Below are positions 2 through 30,084 of a stretch of 55,577 nucleotides of DNA, piece after piece; position 1 is the first letter of the stretch, and every line of letters begins with the position of its first letter. Below the pieces are notes generated by a model. That model was given only the letters and a program-made list of their open reading frames with translations, did not search any database and was not told the origin of the DNA. Source of the DNA: Williamsoniiplasma lucivorax ATCC 49196. Lineage in GTDB: Bacteria; Bacillota_I; Bacilli_A; Mycoplasmatales; Mycoplasmataceae. The stretch is taken from positions 1-55,577 of the forward strand of contig NZ_JADH01000010.1 of assembly GCF_000518285.1 (NCBI RefSeq), given 5' to 3'. Made by a program: the position numbers and the translations under genes.

Positions 2-292
2 CATTCTGATTATTGTTTTCAATATTCTAGTTATAAAGTTCTTGATAAATTAAAAACTATTAATGCCAAAACTTCAATGGGAAGGGTTGGGAATTCATTA
101 GATAACCGAGAAGTTGAATATTTCTTTGGTTGCTTAAAAGGAGAATATTTAAATCATTTAGCTACTGCCAAAATGAAATTTAATGAAATTCATAAGTATA
201 TATCAGAATATATAGAGTGATATAATTTTAAAAGAAAACAAAAAGTATTGAATTGAAAAACGCCAGCTTCCGCTAGCGCTATTAATTCATAA
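2..292 (+). pseudogene. IS3-family (IS150-like) transposase, C-terminal part, cut by the window edge
   Basis: The plus strand reads open from the window edge to a TAA and gives about 96 residues. They match the end of the DDE domain of IS3-family OrfB: an SDYCFQYSS-like segment, GNSLDNREVEYFFGCLKGEY carrying the catalytic Glu, then YIEWYNFKRKQ and a final W-x-TPAS. Both Trp codons near the end are TGA. Family knowledge: this integrase-like enzyme cuts and joins IS ends. I cannot tell whether the 5' part, outside the window, is intact. The element ends just past the stop, inside the lipoprotein gene read from the other strand. Confidence 0.85.
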
Positions 293-2292
293 AATGTAGA
301 ATTTATTTTTCCGTGTTTAATAGTAACTGCACCTGTTATTTTACCTGTTCCAACTGAAGCTGAAATTATCAACTCTCCCTCAATGATGTTTTCACCATTA
401 ATTGCTGATCCAGTTAGTTCATAATCTTCTTCACGAGCAAAACCAAAACCTTCTAATTTATTTAATTCCGCTCTAACCAAATTTTTCACATTTTCTAAAG
501 ATGTTCCAAACATTATAGAAACTTCCATGTTTGTAATATCTGCTTTTACTAATTGAATAGTCAATACACCCTTGATTAAGTTTGATGTAGATGCAGCTGT
601 TATGGTTAGCTCTCCCTCAATTAAGTTCCCATTCACGAATGCTGGCCCACTCAATTTATAATCCGCATCAGTTATATCAGCAACATCTAGTAAAGTCTTA
701 ATTTTTTCATTAACAAGATGCTTAGCTTCTGCAAGTGATAGATTTGGAATAAGTTTTAATTTCAGATTTGCAATGTTGTGTTTCACTATTGAGATAGTTG
801 TTGCACCTGTAATTTTTTTTGATGATTCTGCAGCTGTAATCACTAAATTTCCTTCAGATAATTTTTCATTCGCAATTCCCTCTTCACTCAAAACAAAATC
901 TGTATCTTCGATAAAACTTACACCTGGTAAATTATTCATCGCAGTTCTAATTGCACTTTTTGCATTTGTTAATGTCATCCCAATTGCCAAAGGCACTTGA
1001 AGATTTGCAATGTTGTGTTTTGTCACTTGTATTGTCACTGAACCCTTAATTTTATTTGATGAAGTAGACGCCGTTATTCTCAAGTCTCCTTCAGTTAGTT
1101 TTCCATTTGTAAATCTTTCTTCACTCAAAACAAAATCTGTATCTTGGATAAAACTTACACCTGGTAAATTATTCATCGCATTTCTAATTGCGGTTCTTAC
1201 ATCTATTAATGATGATTCAGGTCCCAATGAAACTTGGAGATTTGCAATATTTACTTTTGCTAGCAAGATAGTAACTGTACCGATAATTTTTTTCGTTGAA
1301 TTAGAAGCCGTTATTGTTACACTTCCTTCAGCCAATTTCTCATCCACGATTCCGTCTCCACTTAGAACAAAATCATTATCAGTAACAAAACCAACACCCG
1401 GTAAATTATTTATCGCAGCTCTAATAATTGTATTAGCCTCTAATAAAGTCGCTCCAACATGCAATTTGGGTTGAATATTTGTGATGTTTGCTTTTGTTAA
1501 TTCAATAGTAATTGAACCTTTAATTTTATTTGATGAAGCTTTAGCTCTTATTGTAAAACTTCCTTGTTCAGCTAAATTTGCACCATTAATCCCAGTTCCA
1601 CTAATGTCAAAATCATCTGCCTCACTAATAGAGCTAACACCTGGTAATCTATTGATTGCATTTATAACATGTACTTTCGCCATACTCAGGGGTATATCTG
1701 GAGCAAGACTTAATTGTATATTTGCAAGGTCTGTTTTTCCTACTTCAAGCACTTTTAAACCTTTAATTTTATTTGATGAACCTTTAGCTTGGACAGTTAT
1801 TTCTCCTTCATATAATCTTCCAGTTTCAATTCCGGCCCCTTGAAATGTAAGGTCAGCATCTTTAACCGAACCAAAACCTGACATCGAGTTAATTGCGGTT
1901 CTAATCATTTGTTTTGCTTTTCAAGATGGTTCTCCAGGTGCAAACCTTAAGCTTTCCATTAACCCAATGTCTTTTCTGAAGATATAACTAACCACGACTT
2001 CACCTTGATAAGAACCATTAATTTTTAAGGTTGCTTGTTCATTTGTGGGAGTAGTCCCGGTTTTTATAGCTATTGTTGCTTCACTCATGCTTGCATTTAA
2101 GGTTTTAAATTTTGCAATAATAGTGTCTGGCGTGATATCACCTAAGATACCTAAATCCACATTAAATCTTTGCATTTGATTACCATTGCGGGTGTTGTTT
2201 TTTGAGTGTGGACTGCAAGAGCAAGCCACAATCGTCGAAGTTGATGCTGCTGCTACAAGCACAGATCCCAACATCATTAATAATTTTTTCAT
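31..2292 (-). CDS. Tandem-repeat surface lipoprotein, 3' end disrupted by an IS3-type element
   Basis: The start is fixed by a strong AGGAGAAG Shine-Dalgarno just before ATG and a lipoprotein signal peptide (MKKLLMMLGS..., lipobox TSTIVAC, Cys at about residue 24). After a degenerate first unit come about seven tandem units of roughly 79 residues. Each has a LPGVSSIxxxDF-like segment, an SxEGxLxITAS segment and a KIKGxVTIxxxK-HNIANLQ segment. One TGA after residue 123 and another at 190-192 must be read as Trp; with that code the frame closes at a TAA at 31-33. The last 85-90 residues are antisense to the transposase, so the native C-terminus is lost or replaced. Role unknown; surface-exposed adhesin-like or antigenic protein is inference. 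Confidence 0.8.
881..1191. repeat. 74-nt near-identical direct repeat inside the lipoprotein gene
   Basis: Positions 881-954 and 1118-1191 agree at 72 of 74 bases and lie exactly 237 nt (79 codons) apart. This equals one protein repeat unit. Other units are far more divergent at the DNA level, so these two look recently duplicated or homogenised by recombination. Confidence 0.85.
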
Positions 2293-2415
2293 TCTTCTCC
2301 TATTTGATGTGAGCATAAAATGAATCATAATATTTTATAAGTTATTAATCATCTATAAAATCAATTCGATTCCCAAAACCTGAGGCAAAAAATTTGTTTT
2401 TTGCCTATTATTTTT

Positions 2416-5939: not shown

Positions 5940-6758
5940 CTATTTTTGTGTTTCTGCTAAATTTTTATAATAAAAGAAATTTTCAATGATAACTTTTTTA
6001 AACTCAGAGAAGTACACTAATTTTTGATCGACAATCATACTATCAAGATGCAATTTTTCCATTCAAAAAATGAAAAGACTAACATTTTTTAAATAAGTAA
6101 TAAAAATCTTAAGTTCTTGAGTTTCTCTATTTTTATGTGGTAACTTCATAAGCTTCTTCTGGCATTTTTTGAAATCAAAATTAAGTTTTGCTTCAAACAT
6201 TTTAATTTTATTTTTTGGACAAGAGTGTGGAAAAAATCAAGCATATGTCGGAATTAAGAACAAATACATCATTCATCAATTAGTGTTTTTTAAAGTAATG
6301 AGATGAGGTTTGTGATAATTAATATTGAACTTAAAATTATCTAAGGATAATTTGTTTTTTAATTCGCATTCATAATTGAAATATAGTTTATTTTGAGACC
6401 ACATTAATTTGTTGTTTCTTCATCAAAATCATAGGATAACTAATAGGTGAATAATTCAAAAACCAATACTTATTGATAGGTAAACTATCAATTCTTCATT
6501 TTTTGTTTTGCTTAAAAAAATTGTCCAACAAGTAAAGAGGATGAAAATTAACGAAGATGAAAACATAAACACCAAATAGTAACTTAGGTTTTTTCATTGC
6601 ATTGTTTTAAAATAGAGAGGTAATTGCTTAAAATTTATTTCTTTTTCAAACATGTTATAAACTATTTTGTTTTTTAACCTATTACCCATGGCATACAAAA
6701 TAGTGTAAAAAATACAAAGTATTAATAAAACAGAATAAGTGATTAAGGTGGCAATCAT
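5940..6758 (-). CDS. Hypothetical membrane protein, paralogue of the next gene
   Basis: A 272-residue protein that appears only when TGA is read as Trp; it contains many TGA codons, so a standard-code search would miss it. ATG is preceded by AAAGGAA at good spacing. The N-terminal half has about four hydrophobic segments: one at residues 1-25, a pair near 60-105 and one near 165-185. The C-terminal half is soluble and Lys-rich, and ends in EFKKVIIENFFYYKNLAE. That tail closely matches the end of the upstream gene. No catalytic motif is seen and the function is unknown. The two genes are 30 bp apart with one terminator, so they are probably an operon. Confidence 0.75.
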
Positions 6759-6788: not shown

Positions 6789-7547
6789 TTATCTTGCTTC
6801 GGTTTCTTTATTTAAATTTTTATAATAAAAGAAGTTTTGAATTACTGCTTTTTTTAATTCATCGATATAAACTGTCTTACCATTTATCACAATTCAACCT
6901 GAACCATATTTTTCGATTCTTCAAATAAATAAACCATGAATCCTTAAATAACTAAGAAAAAGTTTGATTTTTTTATTTGGTGTTTTTGCTTTGAGAATCT
7001 TTTTATTATATATTTTGGTTTCAATATTCAACTGTTTTTTTCAGCTGCGATATCTTAAACCTGCATTTGGAATTAAAGTAATTTCATTTAATTGGTAATG
7101 GCTTATATCCATTTTAAAATTTTCTTGATTTCATTTGTGTTCTAATTCAGGATCACAAATATCATAAACATGACTAGCAGAAGCAATGATTTTGCTTGTT
7201 TTTAAATAAAAATAAGAGGTAAGTGCAATATAAAGCATTCATCCAATTGAACTAATGACAAAGAATCAAATCACTTCATTTTTAAATGCATGTGCTTTAT
7301 TTATAATGAAAAAATAATAACCAGACATGATGTAAGCTATTAGTGTTAGAAAAAAACAAACGAAATTATGAATTAATAATTTACATTTTGCTTTTTTAAA
7401 AAATAATGGAAATTTGGAAAAATCTATTAAATTTTTATACACATCATAAATTAATGTTTTTTTTCAATTGCCATATCCTCAAGTAATGAAAATTGCAAAC
7501 AATGCAAATTCTAATGCAACAACTACAAATATAATTGATTCAGCCAT
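6789..7547 (-). CDS. Hypothetical membrane protein, paralogue of the downstream gene
   Basis: A 252-residue protein, also hidden by TGA codons. Two in-frame ATGs lie at the start; I chose the second because AAAAGGAG is about 8 nt from it and overlaps the first too closely. One transmembrane segment is at residues 3-23, two more near 58-80 and 92-112. A soluble region follows (…HYQLNEITLIPNAGLRY…), then KTVYIDELKKAVIQNFFYYK at the C-terminus. The shared architecture and tail with its neighbour indicate tandem duplication. Possible -10 boxes lie upstream near 7580. Function unknown; the family may be restricted to mollicutes. Confidence 0.75.
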
Positions 7548-7691
7548 TTTCATTCTCCTTTTGGGTTTTATTATCATTTTTTATACACTTTTAAAAATGA
7601 AAAATTGAAAAAAATAAAAAATATTTTTAAAAAAATAGAGATAAATCGACGAAAAAATTGAAAAATAGAAATTTTATTTGTGTTGTTAGAT

Positions 7692-7856: not shown

Positions 7857-11612
<3,756 letters not shown>

Positions 11613-11626
11613 AATTTCTCCAATTC

Positions 11627-15445
<3,819 letters not shown>

Positions 15446-15453
15446 TTTTTCTC

Positions 15454-16626
15454 CTATTTTTCTTTTAATAGCAATCTTATTTTTTGTAAAAACTGGTCAT
15501 TTAGTTCAAAAAAACTTGATTGTTTCTCTTCTTTTTTAGCTAAGAATTTTAAATCTAACATTTTTTGAATGACAGATTTAATCTCTTTTTCTTTGGCAAA
15601 TTGGAAATTTCTAATTTGCAAACTATTGGCGATTTTTTCTTCTTTTAAAACATTTGTATTTAAAAGAATAATTTTTGCTGCAATCACTTTATCAATGAAT
15701 TTTGGAAAAACTGGTGTTGTTCCACTTTGATCTGATTGAATAAAATTATCAAATAAGTATAAACAATAAGTATCATTAACTCCGCTTTTAATAATTTCTT
15801 TTTCAAATTCTAAAAGTGAATCAAGATTAAGTTTTTCAAAACTTTCATTCACTTTCTTGATAAATTTATCCCAATGAATACCAAAGCTATGCATTGGATT
15901 GACAATTGGAATGTTCCAAGAATTTCTTTTTAAGTATCATCTCGCAAAAATAAAGGCGAGCGTAATACTGAATTCTTTGTATGGATAAATAAACAAGAAA
16001 GCATTTAAGATTACACCAGCTTGAGTAATTCCGCCAATATCTTTTTGATTTAAGTTTTTAATATAATTTAAAAACCCCTGTATTTCTTTGTCTATGATTT
16101 TGGTTTGTGGATTTAACAAATTTTTGAATGGTGTAGAAGTTTTAAGATTGCGATAATAATCAGCTTTAATATCTAAGTCAAAACCCATGTTCCTGAATAA
16201 AATATGTACAATTAGTTCATAGTTATCTTCATTAATTTGGAAACTGTCATTTTCAATTAAGTCCCAAATTTCAATCAGGTTTCAAATTTTAAACTCCTCA
16301 CGGGTTTTAGGTTTTTTTCCACTATCAATTTCAATAATGCTTTGCACCGTTTTGGTGTAGTCACCTTGATCAAGATTTTCTTCAATGGCTAATAAGCTTA
16401 AAAAATCCATCAATTTCACATCTTTTGAAATGTTTGAATCCCGGGGAACTTCGTAAGCTTTTAAATAATCATATAAAAAACGATCACTACTTACTTGTCT
16501 TTTAAATGTAAAATGAAATTTACTATTATGCGACACTGGCAAGTTTGTAAAGTACATGTCATTATCTAAATTTTTGCTTGTTCTCTTTACTCATTTATCA
16601 TTTAGAAAATAGTCTAAACCAACCAC
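15454..16626 (-). CDS. Fic-fold-like protein with a degenerate active-site motif
   Basis: The 390-residue protein starts at GTG with GGAG 7 nt upstream and contains TGA-coded Trp. Residues 60-145 are helical and resemble the N-terminal region of Fic proteins. A YYRNLKT segment near 156-162 and the segment FLFIYPYKEFSITLAF near 211-226 sit where Fic proteins have the yR motif and HPFxDGNGR. If the alignment is right, the AMPylation His is Tyr214 and the DGNGR anion-binding residues are lost, so an active AMP-transferase is unlikely. The C-terminal 100 residues resemble a winged-helix or helical tail. It occupies the position where Bacillus has a small rRNA methyltransferase gene (ybxB). The Fic assignment is inference from residual pattern only. 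Confidence 0.5.
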
Positions 16627-16706
16627 TCGTATTCTCCAATTCTTCCAACAATAGACCCAGAGAATAGTAGAAGTTCTTAGCTAGCTAAACTAATCTCAAT
16701 CTTTTA

Positions 16707-16734
16707 AGTATAATACTTAATTGATAAATTTCAA
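16707..16734 (-). promoter_or_regulatory. Promoter of the Fic-like-rpoB-rpoC operon
   Basis: The minus strand has TTGAAA, a 16-bp spacer and TATACT. A start site near 16700 leaves a leader of about 75 nt before the GTG. Confidence 0.65.
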
Positions 16735-16760: not shown

Positions 16761-16780
16761 ATCCACTATTAAGGTACAAA

Positions 16781-16802
16781 AAAACACCAAAATTGGTGTT
16801 TT
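16781..16802 (-). terminator. rplJ-rplL terminator
   Basis: AAAACACCAA and TTGGTGTTTT form a 10-bp stem; on the minus strand it is followed by TTTTT. Confidence 0.85.
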
Positions 16803-16825: not shown

Positions 16826-17191
16826 TTATTTTAATGTAACTGTTGCTCCAGCAGCAACTAAAGCTTCTTTCATTGCTTCTGCATCTTCAGTTTTAACGTT
16901 TTCTTTAACAGTAATTGGAACTGCTCCATCTACCATTTTTTTAGCATCCATTAATCCTAATCCTGTTAATTCTTTAACAGCTTTGATTAAGTTAACTTTT
17001 TGTTCTCCGATTGCTGTAATAACAACACTTACTTCTGATGGTGCTGCATTTGTTGCGGCTGCAGCTGGTGCTGCAACTGCTGCTGCTGCAACAACTCCAA
17101 AGTGTTCTTCGATTGCTTTAACTAAATCGTTTAATTCAGTTAATTTCATTTCTTCTAAAGCTTTAATAATATCGTCTTTTGTAATAGCCAT
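16826..17191 (-). CDS. rplL: Ribosomal protein L7/L12
   Basis: A 121-residue ribosomal stalk protein; dimers bind L10 and recruit translational GTPases. The N-terminal dimerisation helices, an Ala-rich hinge (about residues 32-50) and the C-terminal domain with the LVKAVKELTGLGLMDAKK-type segment and a final AGATVTLK are all visible. It lies 25 bp after rplJ under the same L10 leader control and ends at a strong terminator. Confidence 0.97.
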   Translation of the reverse strand: MAITKDDIIKALEEMKLTELNDLVKAIEEHFGVVAAAAVAAPAAAATNAAPSEVSVVITAIGEQKVNLIKAVKELTGLGLMDAKKMVDGAVPITVKENVKTEDAEAMKEALVAAGATVTLK

Positions 17192-18047: not shown

Positions 18048-18575
18048 TTAAAATTCAATTCCTTCACGCGCAATCACACCTTCATCAAGATAATGTTTGA
18101 TTGGTTTAATTTCTGAGATTAAGTGGGCCACTTGATTTAACTCAGGAAATGAATATCTCCCCGACATTGCAACTTCTAAATGGGTTGATTTGTTTTTTAG
18201 TGCTTCAACTAAATCGTGTTTATTAATAAATCCATTTTGCACAGCTCCCAAAATTTCATCAGCAAGTAAAATATCTAAGTTTTCATTTTTTAATTGATTT
18301 TTAAAATATTCATATCCTTGTAAAGTTTCATGTTTGAACGTTTCAACTTCTTTTGGATCCATTTCTCAAACAAACTTGGTTGAGAAATGGTAAAAAGATT
18401 TAATGTGAATTCCTAATTTCTCTAAAATAATATTTTCACTAGTTGGTCTATTTTTTAAAAAACGAACATAATCAATAGTCTTCCCAGCACCAAGTGCTCT
18501 TAAAACCATTCCATTCAAAACTGAAGTTTTACCCTTACCTTCACCACAATAAATTTGTATATAACCTTTTTCCAT
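18048..18575 (-). CDS. CobO/BtuR-like P-loop ATPase (corrinoid adenosyltransferase family)
   Basis: A 175-residue protein with the P-loop IYCGEGKGKTS at residues 8-18. LLADEILGAVQNG resembles the family LLDE motif, and MSGRY resembles the TGR motif. The C-terminal HLISEIKPIKHYLDEGVIA and the REGIEF end follow the CobO/CobA family closely. One Trp is TGA (…FVWEMDP). Known family reaction: ATP-dependent adenosylation of cob(I)alamin. No cobalamin enzyme or transporter is visible here and mollicutes generally lack B12 metabolism, so another substrate is possible. It sits between rplA and rplJ with its own possible promoter and an rplA terminator upstream. Confidence 0.8.
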
Positions 18576-21168: not shown

Positions 21169-21747
21169 TTATACAAGTATTTTAGATAAATCACTAATTG
21201 TTTTGTCGAGAACTCTTTTTAATTTAGTTCTGGTGATATCATATTTTTTCACCATTTCAGTTTGTGTTGTTCCTAAGACATACTCTTCAAACAAAACTTG
21301 TGCTTGTTCATCATTTTCTGGTAAAGAAAAATAATCTTCTAAAACCATTTTCATAGTAGTTTCGTGAATACCATCATCTTTATCACCGATATTTTCACAT
21401 CACACATATCCTAGTGTGCTTAGGTTTAACATTTTGTGGTGATTAGTCACAAAGGTTGCTGCATAATCAGTACATTTTCAAACTATTGAATCAATGACAA
21501 ATGATAGTAATGTTTTGGTTGTTTTCATGGCAGCATATTTTGTGATTGCTTCATCAAATGCCATTCATGCAATTGAAGTATAATCACTTTTTTCCAGAGG
21601 AATAGCTGGGAATTTCTTGAAAACCTTATTTAATGCATAATGAACAGGTTGTTCAAATTGTTTATAAATTTCGTATTTTTCTTCAAAATTTATTGCATTT
21701 CAGTCTAAATTTTTGATATTTAAGCCTATTTTGGCTATATTATTCAT
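21169..21747 (-). CDS. SigH-like sigma-70-family protein
   Basis: A 192-residue protein with several TGA-coded Trp. The middle (SDYTSIAWMAFDEAITKYA…TLLSFVIDSIVWKC) resembles sigma region 2. The C-terminus (EYVLGTTQTEMVKKYDIT, RTKLKRVLDKTISDLSK) has the look of a region-4 helix-turn-helix. Position is the main support: Bacillus sigH lies exactly here, between rlmB (yacO) and rpmG-secE-nusG. It is highly divergent and may be a minor sigma factor or a decayed one. It starts at ATG with AGGAG, and a small hairpin abuts that Shine-Dalgarno. Confidence 0.6.
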
Positions 21748-28440: not shown

Positions 28441-30084
28441 TTAACTTAACTTAAATTCAGCACCAAAGTTTATTGCATTACTTAGCATCCATACAGGATC
28501 ACCCCTTTGCTCAACTGTTTGTCTTGTAAGAAATTGAAGGTGATAATTCCCTTTTTCTTCATATCATGTATATCCATATTTAACAGATGCTGAACCATTA
28601 TAATTAACATAATTTGCATTAAGTAATGGAATTGTTGTAAACTGATCCAGTAGCCATTCTTCTTCAGGTTTAATCTTACGATTATTTTCCTTATTTAAAT
28701 CAATTCTTATTGGTTGTTTCCAATAAATTGAGCTCAATAGGTTGTCTTGGCCAAGGGCACCTTGTGCTTTAACCACAACAACAGCCTGATCGGTTAAAAA
28801 TTCCATTTTTGAATAATTTTTTATTTTTCCAATATTTGTATCAATAATAGTGTATTTTATACCTTCATTACCAACAGGTTTCAATAATGATGATTGCTGA
28901 TTTTTAGGTATTGAAAAAAATTTAGGTTCAATAATTGTTTCATAATGATGCTCTAATGTAACATCTTTATTATATTTGAATGTGTTTTTGTCACTAGCCA
29001 TTCCCACAAATTTGAAGCTTTCTTTATTTGTTGTGTTCGTTCTTATTGTTGGTTGATGGTATACTTTAATTCCACCACGTATTTCAATACCTCTAAGAAC
29101 AATTTCATCTTCTAATTCAGATGCGGTTCACGGTTTATCAGTTCTAGAATCCAAAATTTTTCACAAATCATTACTAATTGTTGAAATGTGTTCTGGTTCA
29201 TTAACCAAAAATGTGTGGGTCAAATCAATTTTGCCATGATATTTGAATTTAGGATTTTCTTCAGCATGTCCAAAAAAAGTTCAAGTGTTATTTACTGGAT
29301 TTATAGAACGGGGGGCTAGTTTTGGTTGAACAGTAATTCCGCCTCTAATGTCGAGTTTTGCATCAGCGATGGCTTTTTGCAATTCTAATTGGGTTCATGG
29401 TTTTGTTGGTCTAGATTTTAAAATATCTTGTAATTTAGTGCTAATTTTTGAAATGTGTTCAGTTATATTGGTGGAGAAATTATGAATTAAAGAAATTTCA
29501 TCACGATATTTAAATGCGTTATCTACATTTCCGTGTCCAATAAATCTTCAAGTATGATTATTAGAGCTCGATGTACGAGGGGTTAATTGTTTTTCAACAG
29601 TAATCCCACCCTTGCCATCAATTTGTCTATAAACAATTTCTTTTTCTAACTCTTCTTTAGTTCAGGGTTTATCAGTTCTAGAGTTTAGGATATCTTGTAA
29701 TGTGGTTTGAATGTTAGAAATTGGTTGGGTTGTATCAGTTGGAATTTTGTGAAGTAAATTAATTTGGCCATTATATTTGAAATCATTATTAACACTCCCA
29801 TGACCAATAAAAATTCAATTGTGTTGTATTTCACCCAATGAACGATTAGTTAGTTGTCGCTCAACAGTAATCCCACCTTCAACATCAAAACCTTGATTAA
29901 CTATCTCTTTTTCTAACTCTTGTTTAGTTCAGGGTGTATCCCTATTGTCCAAAAGGCTTTGTAATTCAGTTTTGATATTAGAAATTGGTTTTGACATAGA
30001 AACCTTCATACTACAAGCAACCACAAGGTTAGCCATTACCCCAACTAATGAGATAGTACTTAAGAGACTTAATAATTTTTTCAT
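28441..30084 (-). CDS. Lipoprotein with four tandem 88-residue repeats
   Basis: A 547-residue protein that needs TGA as Trp. Signal peptide MKKLLSLLSTISLVGVMANL with lipobox NLVVAC. Four tandem units of about 88 residues follow: ISNIxTxLQxIL, then SRTDKPWTKxELExEIV, then GGITVExQLTxR and WxFIGHGxVxNxFKY. The Trp of PWT is TGA. A unique C-terminal domain (about 150 residues) closes the protein. AAAGGAG precedes ATG. Function unknown; a surface or adhesion role is inference. It differs in repeat motif from the lipoprotein at the left edge. A good promoter is upstream. Confidence 0.8.

What the first reader, a model, noticed from the sequence alone, without database searches (positions are those of the whole stretch)
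15454..16626. Fic-like protein lacking the HPFxDGNGR motif, fused into the rpoB operon
A 390-residue protein 8 nt before rpoB has the spacing of a Fic domain, but IYPYKEFSITLA stands where HPFxDGNGR should be. Bacillus has a methyltransferase gene (ybxB) in this position. Retention in the RNA polymerase operon argues for a function other than AMPylation, perhaps structural or regulatory.
Basis: inference. Interest (0 to 1): 0.55.

Follow-up and report, generated by a model that had tools for sequence, protein, structure and literature searches.

The report
Inactivated Fic protein leading rpoB operon
A protein with the fold of a Fic enzyme, but with its catalytic site worn away, has been kept just in front of the RNA polymerase genes throughout one group of wall-less bacteria, under a short and strikingly conserved RNA-like leader, so it probably does a non-enzymatic job tied to making RNA polymerase.

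Summary
Window 15454-16626 (minus strand, genetic code 4) encodes 390 residues, 8 nt before rpoB. No curated family claims it, yet its AlphaFold2 model (pLDDT 86) matches Fic proteins: the first 40 Foldseek rows are all Fic, and VIA Z reaches 22.9. A profile comparison with 29 motif-bearing Mollicute Fic proteins gives E 1.6e-6 and places IYPYKEFSIT on IHPFxDGNGR. The C-terminus is a winged helix, as in full-length class II Fic proteins. Orthologues exist in 17 of 60 family genomes, which form one clade, always directly before rpoB. The catalytic His is absent in 17 of 17; the motif Pro (17/17), motif Asn (15/17) and fido Arg (17/17) persist. dN/dS is 0.05-0.24. New here: a ~40-nt leader just upstream of the gene in all 17 genomes, one copy each, and in no other genome searched. 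It is 89% identical where the protein is 30% identical, has a covarying stem, and is not in Rfam. Best guess: a non-catalytic regulator of its own X-rpoBC operon. By recalled locus numbers only, it may be MMSYN1_0805, an unexplained gene kept in JCVI-syn3.0. Function is untested.

The parts
15454..16626 (-). X: Fic-fold pseudoenzyme, 390 aa, genetic code 4, GTG start, stop included
15727..16446 (-). Residues about 61-300: Fic/fido helical core
   Evidence: Model; VIA alignment to 4rgl covers residues 27-291, Z 22.9
15961..15990 (-). Residues 213-222 IYPYKEFSIT: eroded HPFxDGNGR motif; P215 kept 17/17, family N at 220 in 15/17 (S here), catalytic His in 0/17
16150..16152 (-). R159, invariant 17/17; aligns with the Arg of GxYR in Fic (the fido Arg after helix a2)
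   Evidence: fido description in PMC2686095
15457..15726 (-). Residues about 301-390: C-terminal winged helix
   Evidence: 8cil_B aligned to residue 379; Fur and ArsR-type rows on 287-390
16651..16704 (-). Conserved 5' leader element of the X-rpoBC unit (core 16665-16692), putative RNA hairpin
16707..16734 (-). Promoter-like site TTGAAA-16-TATACT just upstream of the leader (10 of 12 matches; the scan as a whole found no more sites than shuffles)
16778..16799 (-). Hairpin followed by a T run after rplL, terminator-like by eye; not called by the scan
   Evidence: Sequence
11627..15445 (-). rpoB, starts 8 nt after the X stop codon
   Evidence: product name read from the sequence, not from a family search
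7857..11612 (-). rpoC
   Evidence: product name read from the sequence, not from a family search
16826..17191 (-). rplL (L7/L12), upstream neighbour
   Evidence: product name read from the sequence, not from a family search

Best explanation
X descends from a Fic protein with a C-terminal winged helix (class II architecture). It has lost AMPylation chemistry and is kept as a non-catalytic regulator. SHOWN by computation: the Fic fold plus winged helix; loss of the catalytic His and of most of the motif in all 17 orthologues; purifying selection; an unbroken X-rpoB pairing; and a dedicated conserved leader at the head of the X-rpoBC unit. INFERRED: X controls, probably autogenously, how much RNA polymerase beta/beta' is made, using the winged helix (and perhaps the old nucleotide cleft as a sensor or protein-docking groove) to bind the leader RNA, the promoter DNA around it, or RNA polymerase itself. 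Identity as a Fic-fold pseudoenzyme: about 0.95. Autogenous regulation through the leader: about 0.35. The score below is for the two together.
For: Fold: and a second orthologue. Profile homology: hhalign against 29 Mollicute Fic proteins, E 1.6e-6, score 55.2, against 12.8 for the reversed profile and at most 21.2 in 20 column shuffles. Motif columns: H 0/17, P 17/17, N 15/17; Arg159 17/17. dN/dS 0.053-0.236 in 8 pairs. X next to rpoB in 17/17, even where other DNA has come between rplL and X (L004, L011, L012; L016). The leader has exactly one copy in 17 of 60 family genomes, the same 17 that carry X, always just upstream of X. Its covariance model separates them from all 248 genomes searched in the order: at least 58.9 bits against at most 27.7. 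The outer stem covaries.
Against: The 17 genomes are one clade (100/99), so leader and X may each have been gained once, independently of each other; their co-occurrence is one event, not 17. The leader could serve RNA polymerase, RNases or a ribosomal protein without X. Single-sequence folding energies of the leader are ordinary (z 0.32 to -1.49 in 10 of the 17 folded), and the covariation is modest (3 pairs with changes on both sides, a number that 158 of 500 shuffles reach; 8 of 500 shuffles reach the covariation score). Winged helices can bind protein or nothing. No binding, expression or essentiality data were seen.
Confidence: 0.4

Rival explanations
1. X is an RNA polymerase-associated or assembly factor: made just before beta and translated with it, it binds beta/beta' or the holoenzyme; the leader is a separate, X-independent control or stability element of the operon.
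For: Unbroken X-rpoB adjacency in 17/17 with 8-75 nt spacing in the 16 measured; most invariant residues lie in the Fic core and only K382 in the winged helix, which fits a protein or ligand contact in the core better than DNA reading.
Against: No interaction data; adjacency alone does not show a physical contact.
Confidence: 0.3
2. X is still an enzyme, with another chemistry in the rebuilt cleft, as motif-less fido proteins such as AvrB show is conceivable.
For: The fido Arg (17/17), motif Pro (17/17) and motif Asn (15/17) are kept, and H141, N116, T201 and W230 are invariant in the core. The fido paper notes that AvrB also lacks the motif but keeps Pro, Gly and the Arg and binds ADP (PMC2686095, passages).
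Against: Positions 214, 217-219 and 221-222 drift freely (214 is S, Q, Y or E; 218 is K, E, Q, R or S), unlike a catalytic loop.
Confidence: 0.15
3. X is a ribosome- or chaperone-type factor resembling trigger factor, as suggested in print for MMSYN1_0805 (if that gene is the orthologue).
For: [quoted passage not shown]
Against: Fold and profile evidence here is for Fic plus winged helix; no trigger-factor family is listed for the 17 members in Pfam (E up to 10) or NCBIfam (E up to 0.1).
Confidence: 0.05
4. X is a passenger or decaying pseudogene kept only because it sits before rpoB.
For: The catalytic motif is gone, and the protein diverges fast (30% mean identity between nine representatives).
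Against: Full-length open frames in 17/17 and dN/dS 0.05-0.24 in 8 pairs.
Confidence: 0.03

Closest known systems
Class II Fic proteins with a C-terminal winged helix (Shewanella SoFic 3EQX/3ZCN, Coxiella Fic2 8CIL)
   Same: Same helical core and same C-terminal winged helix; 8CIL_B aligns over residues 30-379, Z 22.1
   Different: Sequence identity 7-15% in the structural alignments; HPFx[D/E]GN[G/K]R is lost; the inhibitory (S/T)xxxE(G/N) motif is not recognisable as a whole; fixed before rpoB
AvrB, motif-less member of the fido superfamily (PMC2686095)
   Same: Fido fold without the catalytic His; motif Pro and the Arg after helix a2 kept
   Different: AvrB is a secreted plant effector with an inserted lobe; X has a winged helix and stands at the head of a housekeeping operon
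Motif-bearing Fic proteins of Mollicutes (three PF02661 places elsewhere in this genome; 29 used here)
   Same: Alignable over 205 columns
   Different: They carry HPFxDGNGR (the 29 were picked by that motif) and are found by Pfam PF02661; X is not
Ribosomal L10 leader (RF00557) upstream of rplJ in the same cluster
   Same: A 5' leader element of a ribosomal/RNAP gene cluster; found by Rfam in 5 of 6 loci here
   Different: The X leader matches no Rfam family at its gathering score and heads the next unit, X-rpoBC
JCVI-syn3.0 protein MMSYN1_0805
   Same: By recalled numbering (0804 rpoB, 0806 rplL) it stands in the same place; of unknown function

Membership tests
Fido superfamily (Fic/Doc/AvrB fold) | Fic helical core fold | tested here: met
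   Foldseek rows 1-40 and 1-49 are all Fic; VIA Z 22.9 over 240 residues, rmsd 3.3
Fido superfamily (Fic/Doc/AvrB fold) | Conserved Arg following helix a2 | tested here: met
   R159 in 17/17, aligned with the Arg of GxYR
Fic AMPylase family (PF02661) | HPFx[D/E]GN[G/K]R with catalytic His | tested here: not met
   His 0/17; only Pro (17/17) and Asn (15/17) of the motif persist
Fic AMPylase family (PF02661) | Score above Pfam's gathering cut-off | tested here: not met
   P0001: no Pfam family at E up to 10; 4 of 17 members touch PF02661, best E 0.05
Class II Fic proteins | C-terminal winged helix after the Fic core | tested here: met
   (8cil_B aligned to residue 379)
Class II Fic proteins | N-terminal inhibitory helix with (S/T)xxxE(G/N) | tested here: inconclusive
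   A helix is modelled (65-81), but the motif is not intact in any of 17; 4 of 17 read ..EG at a plausible place and the alignment there is uncertain
Fic AMPylase family (PF02661) | AMP transfer to a protein | not testable with these tools
   Needs an assay
Known cis-regulatory RNA families (Rfam 15) | Match of the X leader at a family's gathering score | tested here: not met
   No match at the leader reaches a gathering score in the window stretch or in six loci
   Only NF011528, 14.1 bits against a cut-off of 171, over the winged-helix part
JCVI-syn3.0 MMSYN1_0805 | Orthology to X | not tested
   No Mycoplasma mycoides sequence was identified in the collections used

The most novel reading that the evidence does not exclude
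X and its leader form a clade-specific autogenous control module for RNA polymerase synthesis: a dead Fic protein turned into a nucleic-acid-binding (possibly nucleotide-sensing) regulator of rpoBC through a new 5' leader RNA. The same protein is the unexplained MMSYN1_0805 kept in the minimal cell JCVI-syn3.0.
Probability: 0.22. Interest if true: 0.8.

Novelty: new variant of a known kind. Interest (0 to 1): 0.55.

Why it matters
If right, a modifying-enzyme fold was stripped of its chemistry and placed in command of, or bound to, the RNA polymerase genes of a group that includes near-minimal laboratory organisms. It gives a testable structural identity to a protein family that no library used here names, adds a new leader element for the rpoBC operon, and, if MMSYN1_0805 is the orthologue, explains the fold of one of the unknown genes kept in the minimal cell.

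Tried and rejected
Single-sequence searches (Pfam, NCBIfam, PDB) found nothing usable. The profile against PDB sequences gave only a cullin winged helix at E 0.14. PADLOC gave nothing, and PHROGs gave weak hits (best a DnaD-like helicase loader at 2.9e-5 in 2 of 17 members), set aside as winged-helix likeness without further test. The viral structure library gave no match at E 0.001 or below.

hhalign against five small Fic subsets alone was weak (E 0.003-0.54); only the pooled 29 gave E 1.6e-6. hmmsearch of the pooled Fic profile against the 17 X proteins was marginal (best 7.7e-4 with filters off). So the sequence link rests on the profile-profile result and the fold.

Leader as a coding extension: rejected, because its frame relative to X differs between loci. 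Leader in genomes without X: not found by the model in 24 rpoB loci, apart from chance-level scores, nor in the family by exact pattern (0 of 43 genomes without X).

G013 (coded as the same genus as six X-bearing genomes) has no X, but full-length rpoB is not found there either, so it is uninformative. Naming G006 through its two small contigs failed: only BspA/DUF285-type repeat matches and unannotated stretches. Literature on MMSYN1_0805 and on M. florum Mfl597-602 gave one useful passage each; literature on Fic in Mesoplasma or Spiroplasma gave nothing of use. Papers: PMC4993169, PMC7745072 and PMC2686095 were seen as passages; PMC5893858 as outline, two sections and a term search without hits; PMC6609329 and PMC10211241 as term searches without useful hits. 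No paper describing this protein as a Fic-fold pseudoenzyme, or its leader, was met; subscription journals and supplements were not searched.

Rows dropped before counts: L005 from the rpoB spacing and from the rpoB dN/dS set (start not matched by my pattern); L040 and L043 from the tree (not parsed); L083 from the Fic set (no motif match); one search printed upstream sequence for 14 of 24 no-X loci only. In L009 and L017 the outer stem pairs only with a one-base bulge, and the affected outer pairs were counted as unpaired.

Full report
What is there. Read with genetic code 4, window 15454-16626 on the minus strand is a 390-codon gene with a GTG start and a GGAG Shine-Dalgarno-like site. It stands between rplL (16826-17191) and rpoB (11627-15445), 8 nt before rpoB. 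I call it X. X occurs once in its genome.

Fold. Neither X alone nor the members of its 17-row alignment reach the cut-off of any Pfam or NCBIfam family, and PADLOC gives nothing. AlphaFold2 on the alignment gives a confident model (pLDDT 86.4, pTM 0.88). Foldseek against the PDB lists Fic proteins in rows 1-40, E 2.3e-5 at best. VIA-align gives Z 22.9 to 4RGL over residues 27-291 and 22.1 to Coxiella Fic2 (8CIL_B) over residues 30-379, winged helix included; the first rows that are not Fic have Z below 10. A second model, of a divergent orthologue (G006, 23-35% identical to the other rows), has pLDDT 83.7 and again lists only Fic proteins in rows 1-49. The two models share most of their alignment rows, so they are not fully independent.

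Sequence homology. hhalign of the X alignment with 29 Mollicute Fic proteins gives E 1.6e-6, score 55.2 over 205 columns. It aligns FIYPYKEFSIT with SIHPFNDGNGR, and the YYR of X with the RYR of Fic. Controls: reversed Fic 12.8, reversed X 13.7, rpoB 10.2, twenty column shuffles 9.7-21.2. The five Fic subsets taken alone gave only weak scores, and a plain HMM search was marginal, so the relation is remote.

Active site. Across 17 orthologues the position of the catalytic His is S (8), Q (6), Y (2) or E (1). The motif Pro is invariant, the motif Asn is N in 15 of 17, and the D/E, both G and the R positions vary freely. The Arg after helix a2 that marks the fido group is invariant (R159). This resembles AvrB, which also lacks the motif yet keeps Pro and that Arg (PMC2686095, passages). 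The inhibitory (S/T)xxxE(G/N) motif is not intact in any member, though four of 17 show EG at a plausible place; with the catalytic site gone, autoinhibition would no longer be needed (inference).

Distribution and selection. X is found in 4 of 4 genomes of the genus, 17 of 60 of the family, and in a sample of 198 genomes of the order only in the same 17, plus one weak winged-helix hit at E 0.08. Named members, from the record titles: Acholeplasma multilocale, Mesoplasma seiffertii, M. photuris, M. lactucae and M. grammopterae. An rpoB tree of 39 rows puts the 17 X-bearing genomes on one side of a branch (100/99), so one gain and no observed loss inside it. X adjoins rpoB in 17 of 17, and the spacing is 8-75 nt in the 16 measured. 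rplL lies within the held 1.5 kb upstream in 13 of 17; in L004, L011, L012 and L016 other DNA has come between rplL and X while X stays with rpoB (for L016 rplL is seen further upstream). dN/dS of X is 0.053-0.236 in eight pairs, against 0.018-0.145 for the rpoB start in the same pairs. So the protein is under purifying selection and evolves faster than rpoB.

The leader. Printing the upstream sequences showed a block common to all 17: GAGTNTAGTTTAGTTAGTTAAGAGCTTCTGCTATTCTC. In the window it is 16651-16704, core 16665-16692, minus strand. Among nine representatives (36 pairs) 28 positions of the core are 89% identical on average, 28-nt flanks 34-36%, and the X proteins 30%: the leader is better kept than the protein. 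A pattern search finds exactly one copy in each of the 17 X genomes and none in the other 43 of the family; the same pattern reversed finds none. A covariance model finds the same 17 of 248 genomes of the order at 58.9 bits or more, and nothing else above 27.7 bits. Rfam has no match for it at a gathering score, while it does find the known L10 leader nearby in 5 of 6 loci. A -10-like hexamer with at most two mismatches lies 9-12 nt upstream in all 17, so the element probably opens the transcript (inference; the promoter scan itself found no excess of sites). The outer stem has three pairs with changes on both sides (158 of 500 shuffles reach that number), and 8 of 500 shuffles reach its covariation score. 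L009 and L017 can form it with a bulge (sequence). The inner stem hardly varies. Folding energies are not unusual in the 10 sequences folded. An RNA hairpin is favoured over a DNA operator, but not proven.

How it may work. X leads its own unit, X-rpoB-rpoC, after a hairpin with a T run that looks like the rplL terminator (seen by eye; not called by the scan). Fold, lost chemistry, winged helix, position and leader together suggest a non-catalytic regulator of rpoBC expression, perhaps autogenous through the leader. The main rival is an RNA polymerase-binding or assembly protein. Since X and leader were gained in one clade, their perfect co-occurrence counts as one event and cannot tell these apart.

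A possible link to the minimal cell. PMC4993169 (passage) discusses MMSYN1_0805 as a protein of JCVI-syn3.0 without assigned function and likens it to trigger factor. From memory, 0804 is rpoB and 0806 is rplL there, and the M. mycoides group lies near Mesoplasma; if so, 0805 is the expected X orthologue. I could not obtain that sequence. In M. florum, RNAP beta/beta' are mfl597/598 and L7/L12 is mfl601 (PMC7745072, passage), which by numbering leaves two genes between them; the paper's main text does not name them.

Verdict. The thing is a new variant of a known kind: a Fic-fold pseudoenzyme domesticated in the rpoBC operon, with a leader that Rfam does not list. Its function is open.

Noticed in passing
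18048-18575 (-): A CobO/BtuR-type ATP:corrinoid adenosyltransferase gene (PF02572, E 4.7e-45) sits between rplA and rplJ, odd for a mollicute ribosomal cluster.
   Followed up: partly
upstream of rplJ (L105:2556-2689 -, i.e. this genome): An L10 leader (RF00557, 70.7 bits) precedes rplJ, so two leader elements stand in this cluster, before rplJL and before X-rpoBC.
   Followed up: partly
L029-L034, L037 and others, just upstream of rpoB: Several genomes without X share another conserved stretch before rpoB (AATTTGTTTGCGTATGTTTT-like), different from the X leader.
   Followed up: no
21169-21747 (-): A 192-aa ORF that looks like a sigma-type or HTH protein by eye but has no Pfam match at E 0.001.
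   Followed up: partly
31-2328 (-) and 28441-30084 (-): Two large putative lipoproteins that appear to be built of internal repeats (read by eye).
   Followed up: no
5940-6758 and 6789-7577 (-): Two adjacent, apparently paralogous membrane proteins just downstream of rpoC (read by eye).
   Followed up: no
   Followed up: partly
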